Source: Bifidobacterium asteroides | GTDB taxonomy: Bacteria > Actinomycetota > Actinomycetes > Actinomycetales > Bifidobacteriaceae | NCBI RefSeq assembly: GCF_030758775.1 | Contig: NZ_CP132384.1 | Location: 1,550,001 to 1,614,000, forward strand | Direction: 5' to 3' | Length of the DNA stretch: 64,000 nt | Part shown: positions 6,638 through 10,505 of the stretch, one piece after another | Layout of the letters: each line of letters opens with the position of its first letter | How positions within the stretch are numbered: the stretch's first letter is position 1 | Translations under genes and position numbers: made by a program | The notes under the pieces: model-generated | What the model was told of the DNA's origin: nothing | Database searches by the model: none | Seen by the model: the letters and a program-made list of their open reading frames with translations, nothing else

Positions 6638-6793
6638 GGTTACTCCTAGATTCAAGGGCCCCGGGTCGACCGCCCCTGTGGCGGACGTGAACCGGCAACC
6701 GCGTAATAGTCTAGCGCAACCCGGGGAGAATACGACTCCCTTGCGCCACACGCCGAATCAGCCAACCGGTGTGGCGGACCGCTCGCCCTTTAG

Positions 6794-7618
<825 letters not shown>

Positions 7619-7648
7619 GTCTTTAGCAAGGATTCGCTCGCATATGAT

Positions 7649-7687
7649 GGACCCTCGCCGATCGGCTCTGTCCGACAGCGAGGGTCC
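7649..7687. terminator. Bidirectional terminator between budC and malY
   Basis: Perfect 10-bp inverted repeat GGACCCTCGC / GCGAGGGTCC with a 19-nt loop, between the convergent stops of budC (7618) and malY (7707). Confidence 0.65.
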
Positions 7688-7706
7688 ACGATCGTTCAGG
7701 GATCGT

Positions 7707-8918
7707 TCAGGCGTTGAAGACGTACTTGTCCAGACGGTCCATGGCCTCCTGGACACGGCTCAAAGGCAGAGCCAGGTTCATGCGGATGGCGCAGGGAGCC
7801 TTGAACTGCCGCCCGTCCTGGACGGCCACACCCACATCCCAGGCACGCTTCAGCAGCTGGTCCAGGCCCAGATCATGGTCCTTGCACCATTGCGTGCAAT
7901 CAAGGAAGAGCATGTAGGTGCCCTGGGGCTTGGAAAGCTCGACTCCCTCGAAATGCTGCCGGATGTAATCGTAGGCGTAGTCCACATTCCCGGTCAAAAC
8001 CTGCCGGAGTTCATCCACCCACTCCTGGCCCTGGGGCTTGTAGGCCCCGATCAGGGCATGCATGGACAGCACGTTCATGTCGTTGTAGTGGGCCTTGGAC
8101 CCCTTGGCCACAATCCTGTCGCGCAGATACTTGTTGTAGATGATGTGGTAGGAGCCGACCAGCCCGGCCAGGTTGAAGGTCTTGCTGGGTGCATAGAAGG
8201 CAGCCGTCCTGTTGCGGGCATCCTCGCTGACCGATTGGGTGGGGATGTGCCTGTGGCCCGACAGGATCAAGTCTGACCAGATCTCGTCGGAGATGACCAC
8301 GCAGTCGTTCTCCTTATATACTTCCATGGCCTTCTCGATCTCCCACTTCTCCCAGACACGGCCGCAGGGGTTGTGCGGGCTGCAGAAGACCGCCACATGG
8401 ATGTTGTTCTCCTTGAGCTTGCGATCCATGTCCTCGAAGTCCATGCGCCAAACGCCCTGCTCGTCCTTCTTCAAGGGGCTGTGCACGATGTGGTAGCCGT
8501 TGTTCTCGATGCAGGACGTGAAGCCGACATAGGTCGGGCTGTGGAGCAATACCGCATCGCCGGGCGCCGCAAAGGCGGTCAAAGTCGAGACGACACCGCC
8601 CAGGACCCCGTTCTCATAGCCGATATCCTCGGCCGTCAGGCCTTCCACACCATTGCGGTTGCGCTGCCAGTTGATGATGGCGTCGTAGTACTCGTCAGTG
8701 GGATTGAAATAGCCGAAAGCCGGGTGCTTGGCACGCTCGATGATGGCCTCGGGTATGGTCGGCACCGTGGGGAAGTTCATATCGGCAACCCACATGGGGA
8801 TGACATCGAAGCCCTCCTTTGGAGGATCGGGGGCGAATCCAGGCTCGGCACCCAGGCCGTCAACCGCAATGGCGTCCTTGCCGTGCCTGTCCATGATACT
8901 GGTGAAATCGTATGTCAT
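7707..8918 (-). CDS. malY: PLP-dependent C-S lyase of the MalY/PatB family
   Basis: Fold-type I aminotransferase-like enzyme; family members cleave cystathionine or cysteine conjugates to release a thiol, pyruvate and ammonia. The 403 residues include VIPMWVADMNF near the N-terminus, CSPHNPCGRVW, ISDEIWSDL, and the PLP lysine in APSKTFNLAGL. The C-terminal Arg site is in CAIRMNLALP. It is divergent from the YheO-like regulator at 9061, separated by about 140 bases. That arrangement makes the regulator a candidate controller, which is inference. Confidence 0.88.
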   Translation of the reverse strand: MTYDFTSIMDRHGKDAIAVDGLGAEPGFAPDPPKEGFDVIPMWVADMNFPTVPTIPEAIIERAKHPAFGYFNPTDEYYDAIINWQRNRNGVEGLTAEDIGYENGVLGGVVSTLTAFAAPGDAVLLHSPTYVGFTSCIENNGYHIVHSPLKKDEQGVWRMDFEDMDRKLKENNIHVAVFCSPHNPCGRVWEKWEIEKAMEVYKENDCVVISDEIWSDLILSGHRHIPTQSVSEDARNRTAAFYAPSKTFNLAGLVGSYHIIYNKYLRDRIVAKGSKAHYNDMNVLSMHALIGAYKPQGQEWVDELRQVLTGNVDYAYDYIRQHFEGVELSKPQGTYMLFLDCTQWCKDHDLGLDQLLKRAWDVGVAVQDGRQFKAPCAIRMNLALPLSRVQEAMDRLDKYVFNA

Positions 8919-9060
8919 TAGTCAACCTCTCATCCCGTGCAGATGTGCTCGCAGCGACCTTCCGCCAGTCTACAGCCGCGGACTCCGTCCGAGTGTCTGC
9001 GTCTAATACCAGAGCAGCGATGGTACTATCTGGCTTTAGTCAGTGGATGGGGGTGACCAA

Positions 9061-9837
9061 ATGAGTGCATCAAAGCCCGTTTCATCTTCTCTGCAGCTTT
9101 TCGTCCCGCTGGTGGACTTCCTGGGTAAGATCCTCGGCCCCAAGACGGAAGTTGTGCTTCAGAACGTCAGGGATTTCTCGCATTCGGTGGTTGCCATCGC
9201 CAACGGCAACTTGAGCGGACGCACCATAGGCAGTCCCGCCACCGACCTGGTCCTGCACATCTGGCGGAACCACGAATACGACCAGCACAACTATTTGACC
9301 CATTACGCTGGCTACACCATCCATGGGCATCCCGTGGTCTCGTCCACCCTGTTCGTGCGGAATTCCAGAGGACGGGTGATCGGCTTTCTCTGCATCAATT
9401 TCGACAGCTCCGCCTTCCGACAGGCCAGCAAAGAGCTCAGAAGAGCAAGCGCTTATCTGGACGCTCTGGGACTGGCCGATCCTGCTGCGGTACTGAACGA
9501 CGATAGAGCCGCATCAGAAGAATCGGATGCTGAGACCGGGACCGGCCAATCGACCCGTGAAGTGCTCTCAGTCAACACAGACGAAGTAGTTACGCATAAT
9601 ATTGCCGAATTCGCCGCAGAGCTTGGTATTCCTCCGGCAAGAATGAACCGGCAGGAGCGACTGCAGCTGATCACGCGCCTGGATGGGTCAGGGGTCTTCC
9701 TGGTCAAGGGCTCGGTGGACGCAGTTGCCCGGGCTCTAGGGATCTCCTCACCCAGCGTCTACCGCTATTTACACACGATACGCAATGCGGCTGCGGACCC
9801 AGATCAGAGCACCCCGGCTCGCCCTGCTCAGCTTTGA
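9061..9837 (+). CDS. YheO-like PAS / helix-turn-helix transcriptional regulator
   Basis: A 258-residue protein with an N-terminal YheO-like PAS domain (about residues 10-130; motifs FLGKILGPKTEVVLQN and HSVVAIANG). A variable linker follows, then a C-terminal HTH (about 195-245) with SVDAVARALGISSPSVYRYL. An ATG at 9061 preceded by GGGGGTGA is chosen; an in-frame GTG at 9043 is the alternative. Family members are DNA-binding regulators of unknown ligand. It is divergent from malY, and a strong promoter for the next transcript begins inside its stop codon. Confidence 0.85.
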   Translation: MSASKPVSSSLQLFVPLVDFLGKILGPKTEVVLQNVRDFSHSVVAIANGNLSGRTIGSPATDLVLHIWRNHEYDQHNYLTHYAGYTIHGHPVVSSTLFVRNSRGRVIGFLCINFDSSAFRQASKELRRASAYLDALGLADPAAVLNDDRAASEESDAETGTGQSTREVLSVNTDEVVTHNIAEFAAELGIPPARMNRQERLQLITRLDGSGVFLVKGSVDAVARALGISSPSVYRYLHTIRNAAADPDQSTPARPAQL

Positions 9838-9861
9838 CACACCCCCTCCAAGGTGTATGAT
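9834..9861 (+). promoter_or_regulatory. Near-consensus sigma-70-type promoter starting in the yheO-like stop codon
   Basis: TTGACA at 9834-9839, a 16-base spacer, then TATGAT at 9856-9861. The TGA of the preceding gene lies inside the -35 box. Predicted transcription would start near 9868 and read into the leader peptide region. Confidence 0.7.
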
Positions 9862-9871
9862 TAGTACAAGA

Positions 9872-9888
9872 TATACGGGGGACGTATA
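9872..9888. promoter_or_regulatory. Inverted repeat TATACG-N5-CGTATA at the start of the leader transcript
   Basis: Perfect 6-5-6 inverted repeat 11 bases past the -10 box. It could be an operator overlapping the transcription start, or a small RNA hairpin with a GGGGA loop. The two roles cannot be told apart from sequence. Confidence 0.45.
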
Positions 9889-9939
9889 CACGATGGACCT
9901 ACAGGGGCTGAACTATTTTCAGTTCCAGAGGAGATGTAC

Positions 9940-10023
9940 ATGCGTATAGTTTCCCGGCATAAGCCGACGGCTCCTACTCGAGCCCGTCCCGTATTCTTTT
10001 CCCTGATAAATTCTCATACTTAG
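9940..10023 (+). CDS. Predicted 27-residue leader peptide
   Basis: A short frame ATG(9940)...TAG(10023) with an ideal ribosome site: GAGGAG at 9928-9933, six bases before the ATG. It begins MRIVSRHKPT and continues with an Arg/Pro-rich middle (TRARP) before ending FFSLINSHT. A small hairpin (CTGAAC / GTTCCAG, 9908-9928) abuts the Shine-Dalgarno. It follows the strong promoter at 9834 and is followed by structured RNA rather than by a gene, so it looks like a translated leader. No match to a known leader peptide is recognised. Confidence 0.5.
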   Translation: MRIVSRHKPTAPTRARPVFFSLINSHT

Positions 10024-10031
10024 CGGTTCTA

Positions 10032-10045
10032 CGGAAGCGCTTCCG
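10032..10045. promoter_or_regulatory. 14-bp perfect palindrome resembling a LacI-family operator
   Basis: CGGAAGCGCTTCCG is perfectly self-complementary around a central CG, the symmetry usual for LacI/GalR operators. It lies 9 bases after the leader peptide stop. No sugar gene follows on the plus strand, so its role is unclear. Confidence 0.4.
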
Positions 10046-10143
10046 GATTATTGTGCCGTGCGCAGATCTGATGGCTGTCTACGTAAGCACGTTTGGGGCA
10101 CCGAGAAGTGGATATACACCGAGGGTGCTCTATGATCCGACAT

Positions 10144-10268
10144 AAAAAACGCGCCTAGCTCTTTTCCCCCGGCTTACATGTGAAGCCATACATATTTGCA
10201 TCGGTGAATCATGGATGCTAGAGCTAGGCGGCGAGAGGACGGCCCCGACATTAGCCGGGGCTGGTCCT
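10144..10268 (-). ncRNA. Candidate structured non-coding RNA with 3' T-run
   Basis: On the minus strand a GC-rich hairpin (10236-10268) is followed by a 10-bp closing stem, CGCCTAGCTC / GAGCTAGGCG (10152-10161 with 10221-10230). That stem encloses two 5-bp hairpins (GGCTT/AAGCC at 10171-10187; GCATC/GATGC at 10198-10218). Six T residues follow at 10144-10149, the same stem-plus-T6 style as the rpmE terminator. No known RNA family is recognised. The same pairings form on the plus strand, where they would lie in the leader transcript, so the transcribed strand is uncertain. Confidence 0.4.
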
Positions 10269-10390
10269 TCTACTAAGACTATCAAGAAAGTTCGGGGGAC
10301 AAAACCTTAGTCATTCCACTGGCAGTCATCGAAGACGCGAACCAGTACTGGGCTGAGAAACCTGAACCTCTTAATTCGATCCATCAATAA

Positions 10391-10423
10391 AGCCCCCGAA
10401 ACCTTCTAAAGGTTCCGGGGGCT
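10391..10423 (-). terminator. Terminator downstream of tRNA-Met
   Basis: AGCCCCCG-AACC pairs with GGTTCCGGGGGCT around a short loop. On the minus strand the stem is followed by TTTATTG. It lies 9 bases beyond the tRNA 3' end. Confidence 0.85.
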
Positions 10424-10431
10424 TGTCTGTG

Positions 10432-10505
10432 TGGGGCCTCAGGGGCTTGAACCCTGGACCGAACGATTATGAGTCGTTTGCTCTAACCGACTGAGCTAAG
10501 GCCCC
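10432..10505 (-). tRNA. tRNA-Met(CAT), elongator-like
   Basis: A 74-nt cloverleaf. The 7-bp acceptor is GGGGCCT/AGGCCCC, the D arm GCTC/GAGC, the anticodon stem AACGA/TCGTT with loop CTCATAA (anticodon CAT), and the T arm CAGGG/CCCTG. The discriminator is A and CCA is not encoded. The acceptor has a full first pair and the anticodon stem lacks the initiator GGG/CCC pairs, so it is not the initiator. Elongator Met is favoured; a lysidine-modified tRNA-Ile2 cannot be fully excluded. Confidence 0.92.

What the first reader, a model, noticed from the sequence alone, without database searches (positions are those of the whole stretch)
9834..10423. Dense RNA/leader locus with no gene downstream
A near-consensus promoter begins inside the stop codon of the YheO-like gene. 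It drives a region holding a well-initiated 27-codon ORF, two palindromes and a branched RNA fold, and then meets the minus-strand tRNA-Met terminator. No protein gene follows on the plus strand, so the roughly 400-base transcript appears to be an end in itself: a regulatory RNA with a translated uORF, or the leader of a lost gene. I recognise no Rfam-like family. The sequence elements are direct observations; the transcript itself is inference.
Basis: partly seen in the sequence, partly recalled or inferred. Interest (0 to 1): 0.72.

Follow-up and report, generated by a model that had tools for sequence, protein, structure and literature searches.

The report
New structured RNA in bee bifidobacteria
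The gap holds what looks like a stand-alone gene for a folded RNA of about 400 bases, kept by most bee-associated bifidobacteria examined and matching no catalogued RNA family; what it does is unknown.

Summary
Window 9834-10300 carries a conserved structured-RNA gene: near-consensus promoter, fold better than 100 of 100 shuffles (z -5.8). Homologues occur in 21 of 27 genomes of its genus (B. asteroides group, B. indicum, B. xylocopae, Bombiscardovia coagulans); none was confirmed in the other 162 family genomes searched. Two helices show two-sided compensatory changes between subclades: a 5' hairpin with a GGGGA loop and a 13-bp 3' core helix. All 21 members carry that loop motif and an invariant UUCCCCC strand beside the core, a candidate long-range pseudoknot. 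No Rfam family matches. No plus-strand gene follows directly, and its neighbours change, so a stand-alone RNA is likelier than a leader. The 27-codon ORF has its Shine-Dalgarno and start in 16 of 16 near members, but none of the 5 distant members has such an ORF; selection on the peptide is not shown (P 0.06). The RNA probably ends near 10270-10300, not 10423. Most likely it is a trans-acting or protein-binding RNA. Transcription, 3' end and function are untested.

The parts
9834..9861 (+). sigma-70-type promoter-like site, TTGACA N16 TATGAT; overlaps the stop codon of the YheO-like ORF
   Evidence: best-scoring site 9 to 11 of 12 in 21 of 21 members (TTGACA in 20, TTGACT in 1) at 10, 19 or 23-25 nt before hairpin P1; no null was computed for that scan
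9868..10300 (+). structured RNA; start inferred from the promoter, end inferred from conservation (10270-10300)
   Evidence: z -5.83 for 9868-10423; homologues in 21 of 27 genus genomes
9872..9888 (+). hairpin P1 with GGGGA loop (9878-9882)
   Evidence: 12 of 21 members aligned: 100% of cells paired, 3 of 5 scored pairs with two-sided changes, 0 of 500 shuffles reach the covariation score, 51 of 500 reach the number of two-sided pairs
9904..9926 (+). hairpin P2, 9 bp
   Evidence: 96.6% of cells paired in the 13 nearest members, one-sided changes only
9930..9954 (+). hairpin P3; its 5' arm carries the Shine-Dalgarno sequence and the start codon lies in its loop
   Evidence: 8 scored pairs 100% paired, almost no variation
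9940..10023 (+). 27-codon ORF with AGGAG six bases before ATG
   Evidence: same length and stop in 13 of 13 window-clade members; SD-ATG with ORFs of 30, 38 and 38 codons in 3 of 3 indicum-group members; none of 27 codons or more in 5 of 5 distant members
10022..10041 (+). UNCG-tetraloop hairpin
   Evidence: UACG, UGCG and UUCG in different members; 7 scored pairs 100% paired
10044..10139 (+). helix P5 (10044-10051 with 10132-10139) closing a branched domain
   Evidence: 7 or 8 of 8 pairs at the same place in 13 of 13 nearest members; in 4 of 5 distant members a similar helix at a like distance; the fifth and the 3 indicum-group members gave their best match elsewhere; consensus fold of distant members
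10150..10233 (+). core helix P6 (10150-10162 with 10220-10233)
   Evidence: 21 members, 18 distinct rows: 97.0% of cells paired, 5 of 13 pairs with two-sided changes, 0 of 500 shuffles reach the covariation score
10163..10174 (+). strand UUUCCCCCGGCU, candidate partner of the P1 loop
   Evidence: UUCCCCCGGCU in 21 of 21 members
10236..10269 (+). 3' hairpin; followed by a T-run in the distant members, weak T-run here
   Evidence: compensatory changes; tails
10270..10297 (+). mostly conserved tail CTACTAAGACTATCAAGAAAGTTCGGGG after the hairpin; role unclear
10390..10424 (-). inverted repeat, likely terminator of the minus-strand tRNA-Met; outside the conserved RNA

Best explanation
The region is a stand-alone gene for a structured RNA of about 400 nt with its own promoter. 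Shown by computation: conservation, covarying helices between subclades, a promoter-like site in every member, no direct downstream gene in common, no Rfam match. Inferred: it is transcribed, and folds into a 5' hairpin (P1), a fast-changing middle with a branched domain, and a conserved 3' core (P6). The GGGGA loop of P1 pairs with the UUCCCCC strand at the base of P6 and ties the two ends together. Most likely it acts in trans, as a protein-binding RNA or as an RNA regulator that exposes the C-rich strand to purine-rich sites when the loop contact opens. In the B. asteroides and B. indicum groups a small ORF is present whose ribosome-binding site sits in hairpin P3. The act of translating it may change the fold; whether the peptide matters is open.
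For: Fold z -5.83. Homologues by DNA in 15 of 26 same-genus relatives and by a model built from 16 of them in 21 of 27 genus genomes, five of these new. 16 of 27 predicted pairs of the 3' part have two-sided changes in 13 aligned members. P1 and P6 exceed 500 shuffles and every slid version in covariation score. GGGGA in the P1 loop and UUCCCCC beside P6 in 21 of 21. Promoter-like site in 21 of 21. Upstream genes differ between subclades and no plus-strand gene follows directly in common. No match in plasmids or phages, none in viral contigs by core pattern.
Against: No transcript data. Within the 13 nearest members there are no two-sided changes and neither pairing (91 of 500) nor covariation score (131 of 500) beats shuffles. 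For P1, 51 of 500 shuffles reach the number of two-sided pairs and all 500 the number of pair types; for P6, 86 of 500 the pair types. Both sides of the pseudoknot keep their motif, so covariation does not prove it, and distant members hold 2 to 4 GGGGA motifs that could compete. The other strand also folds well (z -4.61). No target or partner was found or tested. Six of 27 genus genomes gave no confirmed copy. The 3' hairpin in the window has a poor T-run.
Confidence: 0.78

Rival explanations
1. A dual-function RNA or small-protein mRNA: the 27-codon ORF is the product and the rest is its untranslated region.
For: 1 of 17 sites at 9926-9942 varies. SD and start in 16 of 16 near members. In the 13 nearest, 15 of 37 distinct changes are synonymous against 10.7 expected (P 0.06), and the pairwise synonymous share in frame is 0.47 against 0.26 expected, higher than in the other two frames (0.29, 0.17).
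Against: Variable sites by codon position are 13, 8 and 10. Peptides of the indicum group are unlike the window's. No such ORF in 5 of 5 distant members. The SD bases also form hairpin P3. The core downstream of the ORF is better conserved (16 of 95 sites vary, ORF 30 of 78).
Confidence: 0.12
2. A cis-acting leader or attenuator of a gene now lost or of the region downstream.
For: Promoter, small SD-led ORF and ordered hairpins resemble an attenuator. A plus-strand ABC-F-like gene lies 1.4 to 5 kb downstream in 8 of 11 loci (name by sight).
Against: That gene lies beyond minus-strand genes (at least tRNA-Met in L082), and no plus-strand gene follows directly in common. tRNA-Met is on the other strand, more than 1.3 kb from the core in 4 of 10 fetched loci and not found in the 12 kb of 2 others. 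A lost gene's leader should not keep compensatory changes.
Confidence: 0.06
3. Functional replacement of 6S or Ms1 RNA: it binds RNA polymerase.
For: This genome gives no 6S match even at E 10, and a published synteny search found no intergenic region able to hold Ms1 in Bifidobacterium (passages of PMC9130861). Size and own promoter would fit.
Against: No 6S-like rod was seen. Synteny differs from Ms1. The idea rests on an absence, and only this genome was searched for 6S.
Confidence: 0.1
4. Conserved DNA rather than RNA (operator or attachment site by tRNA-Met).
For: Lies beside a tRNA gene in the window and several members; inverted repeats.
Against: Compensatory changes in helices, conservation spread over more than 400 bases, tRNA not beside it in several members, no phage or plasmid copies.
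Confidence: 0.03

Closest known systems
Ms1 RNA of Actinobacteria (PMC9130861, passages read)
   Same: Stand-alone structured RNA of actinobacteria, hard to find by sequence alone
   Different: Ms1 lies by a HAD hydrolase gene and was not found in Bifidobacterium; here the neighbours are prfA/rpmE or YheO-like genes and tRNA-Met; no known RNA-polymerase link
6S RNA (RF00013)
   Same: Stand-alone RNA with its own gene (recalled)
   Different: No match in this genome at E 10; no rod-like fold seen
ROOL, GOLLD and OLE ornate RNAs (PMC12286853, passages read)
   Same: Large, intricate RNAs with loop contacts; ROOL and GOLLD are often near tRNA islands
   Different: Many GOLLD RNAs exceed 800 nt; ROOL and GOLLD are carried by phages and prophages, while this one lies in a conserved chromosomal setting and is not in the phage collection; no Rfam match
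RNase P RNA (RF00010) and tmRNA (RF00023)
   Same: Similar length; tmRNA also holds an ORF (recalled)
   Different: Both are found elsewhere in this genome over their cut-offs
Dual-function small RNAs such as SgrS (recalled)
   Same: Regulatory RNA with an SD-led small ORF
   Different: Peptide unlike between groups and ORF absent in distant members

Membership tests
Any Rfam 15 family | Score at or above a family's gathering threshold | tested here: not met
   Window: none on the RNA. 9800-10440 at E up to 10: best on the RNA 15.7 bits against a cut-off of 114. Five distant members at E up to 3: best on the RNA 22.4 bits against 39
6S RNA | Match to RF00013 | tested here: not met
   0 matches in own genome at E up to 10
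6S RNA | Binds RNA-polymerase holoenzyme | not testable with these tools
   needs RIP-seq
Ms1 RNA | Conserved neighbours (HAD hydrolase, oxidoreductase; from PMC9130861) | tested here: inconclusive
   Neighbours seen are prmC-prfA-rpmE, or SDR/aminotransferase/YheO-like, and tRNA-Met, but the genes were named by sight, not by a family search; an SDR is an oxidoreductase
Ms1 RNA | Binds RNA-polymerase core | not testable with these tools
   needs pull-down
RNase P RNA / tmRNA | This locus matches the family model | tested here: not met
   The genome's matches over cut-off are at C1:791613-791989 and C1:686579-686977
Ornate oligomeric RNAs (ROOL, GOLLD, OLE) | Match to their Rfam families | tested here: not met
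   (that these families are in Rfam is recalled)
Ornate oligomeric RNAs (ROOL, GOLLD, OLE) | Homo-oligomer held by loop contacts | not testable with these tools
   needs native gel or cryo-EM
Cis-regulatory leader | Conserved same-strand gene directly downstream | tested here: not met
   11 loci, ORFs of 90 aa or more
Dual-function sRNA | Conserved encoded peptide | tested here: inconclusive
   Weak hint in the 13 nearest (P 0.06); unlike between groups
Dual-function sRNA | Conserved ribosome-binding site and start | tested here: inconclusive
   16 of 16 near members, 0 of 5 distant members; the same bases also form hairpin P3

The most novel reading that the evidence does not exclude
A new class of large structured bacterial RNA, confined to bee-associated bifidobacteria, whose GGGGA loop and CCCCC strand meet between molecules as well as within one. 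It would form an RNA-only or RNA-protein assembly, and its fold would be switched by a ribosome translating a small built-in ORF.
Probability: 0.1. Interest if true: 0.85.

Novelty: new variant of a known kind. Interest (0 to 1): 0.62.

Why it matters
Orphan structured RNAs of this size are few (recalled), and this one matches no Rfam family. It sits in bifidobacteria that live with bees (recalled), and this genome shows no recognisable 6S RNA. Its core is conserved while its middle domain differs beyond recognition between subclades, and one subclade has a small ORF the other lacks, which makes the evolution of a modular RNA open to direct study.

Tried and rejected
Rejected: Rfam families at loose thresholds, far below cut-off on the RNA. 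RNase P and tmRNA as identities. 6S. Members outside the genus: model R2 gave 4 matches in g34 genomes of the family (24.8 to 29.5 bits). I read all 4; none has UUCCCCC or GGGGA in the 701 bases around the match; L071 has a similar stem but directly follows a coding frame. In the order search 20 of 297 genomes match, 8 in the genus and 12 outside with 13 matches of 23.6 to 32.8 bits; I did not read those, and 3 of the 13 cover only the terminal hairpin. Of 31 stretches in the genome collection that fit the core pattern, 14 are Bifidobacterium or Bombiscardovia; the 17 others score at most 14.4 bits with R2 against 102 and 117 for the two members scored with them. The six genus genomes without the RNA were searched in 6.5 kb beside prfA and whole; R2 gave three weak matches there (16.2, 14.2 and 11.6 bits), which I did not read. 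Model R3 of the distant members' middle domain does not match 7 near members tested. Covariation inside the 13 nearest members: none. Literature: no description in the listings; apart from passages of PMC9130861 and PMC12286853 only listings were seen.

Full report
Observation. The promoter-like site TTGACA-16-TATGAT (9834-9861) overlaps the stop codon of the YheO-like ORF 9043-9837. A 27-codon ORF with AGGAG six bases before its ATG starts at 9940. tRNA-Met lies at 10431-10505 on the minus strand, with a strong inverted repeat at 10390-10424. The plus-strand RNA 9868-10423 folds to -211.9 kcal/mol, z -5.83, with 0 of 100 shuffles as good. No Rfam family matches the RNA at the gathering score, and at E up to 10 the best match on it is 15.7 bits against a cut-off of 114.

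Conservation. A DNA search of 59 genomes matched 17: this genome, 15 of 26 same-genus relatives, and one 27-base hit in another family that I regard as chance. Nine of the relatives are 89-95% identical over 468-583 query bases, three are 80-83% identical over 469-515, and three match the 3' core only at 74-76%. Two of the loci lie on the other strand and were turned for the second alignment. In the 13 nearest sequences 1 of 21 sites varies at 9872-9892 and 16 of 95 in the core, against 65 of 92 at 10049-10140.

Wider family. A covariance model of the 3' core built from 16 members (R1) finds the RNA in 21 of 27 genomes of the genus, adding five distant members at E 6.8e-7 to 1.7e-4. These five carry the same order of parts: promoter-like site, hairpin with G-rich loop, 295-342 bases from that hairpin to the core (260-277 in the near members), core helix with AUUCCCCCGGCU, and a hairpin with a T-run. 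A broader model R2 was built with them included, so its 102 to 120 bits for them are by construction. R2 matches 25 of 189 family genomes: 21 in the genus and 4 of the other 162, which I read and rejected. Contig lengths and titles in the genome collection name 14 members: three B. asteroides strains, B. polysaccharolyticum, B. apousia, B. indicum, B. mizhiense, B. mellis, B. choladohabitans, B. xylocopae, Bombiscardovia coagulans and three unnamed Bifidobacterium. The six genus genomes without the RNA form one group in a release-factor (PrfA) tree with support 95/94. B. coagulans, which has the RNA, is next to them in the midpoint-rooted drawing. Loss, or divergence beyond recognition, is therefore at least as possible as later gain.

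Structure. RNAalifold on 13 representative 3' regions predicts 27 pairs, 16 with at least one two-sided compensatory change. For hairpin P1 (12 of 21 members; the other 9 have the same P1), 100% of cells pair and 3 of 5 scored pairs have two-sided changes. For the 13-bp core helix (21 members, 18 distinct rows), 97.0% of cells pair and 5 of 13 pairs have two-sided changes. Both exceed all 500 shuffles in covariation score and all slid versions. But 51 of 500 shuffles reach P1's number of two-sided pairs, and the count of pair types does not stand out for either helix. Related sequences share changes, so the cells are not independent events. Inside the 13 nearest members the proposed helices stay paired (98.4%), but changes are one-sided and do not beat shuffles. 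A hairpin at 10022-10041 carries a UNCG tetraloop whose second base is A, G or U in different members.

Long-range contact. All 21 members have GGGGA in the P1 loop and UUCCCCC next to the core helix, five or more Watson-Crick pairs as read from those rows. In the 16 near members the P1 loop is the only GGGGA from P1 to 130 bases past the core start; in the distant members there are 2 to 4, so the partner is less certain there. Since the motif is kept on both sides, this is co-conservation and not covariation.

Stand-alone gene. All 21 members have a TTGAC[A/T] element with a -10-like element, at 10 nt (13 window-clade members), 19 nt (3 indicum-group members) or 23-25 nt (5 distant members) before P1. 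I took the best-scoring site and computed no null. Among 11 loci compared, the distant members have prmC-prfA upstream with rpmE near by; in the window clade short-chain dehydrogenase, aminotransferase and YheO-like genes lie in between (gene names by sight, rpmE from its leader). No plus-strand gene follows directly in common. An ABC-F-like plus-strand gene lies 1.4 to 5 kb downstream in 8 of 11, beyond minus-strand genes. Of the ten fetched loci, tRNA-Met is within about 0.4 kb of the core in four, 1.3 kb or more away in four, and not found within 12 kb in two. So the RNA follows neither neighbour.

The small ORF. SD and start are kept in 16 of 16 near members, and length and stop in the 13 nearest. 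The indicum group has unlike peptides of 30-38 residues, and 0 of 5 distant members has an SD-led ORF of 27 codons or more. In the 13 nearest, variable sites by codon position are 13, 8 and 10, while the pairwise synonymous share is 0.47 against 0.26 expected. Counting each distinct change once, 15 of 37 are synonymous against 10.7 expected, P 0.06. This is a hint at most. The SD region also forms a hairpin arm, which alone could explain its invariance. Translation is possible but is not a defining trait of the RNA.

3' end. Distant members end in a hairpin followed by a T-run, as an intrinsic terminator. In the window the same hairpin (10236-10269) is followed by CTTCTACT, the terminator scan does not list it, and 28 further bases are mostly conserved. 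I place the end at 10270-10300; read-through to the tRNA-Met terminator remains possible.

Function. Nothing here shows a target or partner. This genome gives no 6S match, and a published synteny search found no intergenic space for Ms1 in Bifidobacterium (PMC9130861, passages). That leaves a polymerase-regulator role open but unsupported. A conserved core with a middle domain that differs between subclades fits an RNA whose 5' and 3' parts do the work. I commit to a trans-acting or protein-binding structured RNA, with the P1-P6 contact as its key fold; this step is inference.

Novelty. No Rfam, plasmid, phage or viral-contig match was found, and the literature listings show no description. 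The paper library is limited, so absence from print is not proven. The broad kind, an orphan structured RNA, is known; this family and its layout appear new.

Noticed in passing
window 6657-6702 (-): L31-Actinobacteria ribosomal-protein leader over its Rfam cut-off; the same leader is present in the fetched stretches of all 5 distant members.
   Followed up: partly
window 6845-9837: Short-chain dehydrogenase, aminotransferase and YheO-like genes sit between the rpmE side and the RNA in the window clade but not in the distant members compared, as if inserted there (names by sight).
   Followed up: partly
L014, 78 bases after the P1 start: The uncultured indicum-group member has a second UUCCCCC strand just after the start codon of its small ORF.
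   Followed up: no
L045-L049, from about 190-200 bases after the P1 start in four of them: A strongly conserved block GGGGATTCG..AGAATC..GACCCGG..TCCGGATGA in the five distant members with its own branched fold; not found in 7 near members tested.
   Followed up: partly
window 10004-10023 and 10273-10284: TGATA..CTTAG could pair with CTAAG..TATCA beyond the 3' hairpin, which would place the conserved tail inside the RNA; suggested in part by a consensus fold and otherwise by eye.
   Followed up: no
G123:C1:1263643-1263829 (L071): Weak R2 match (29.5 bits) outside the genus with a similar stem followed by a hairpin, directly after a coding frame; probably chance.
   Followed up: partly
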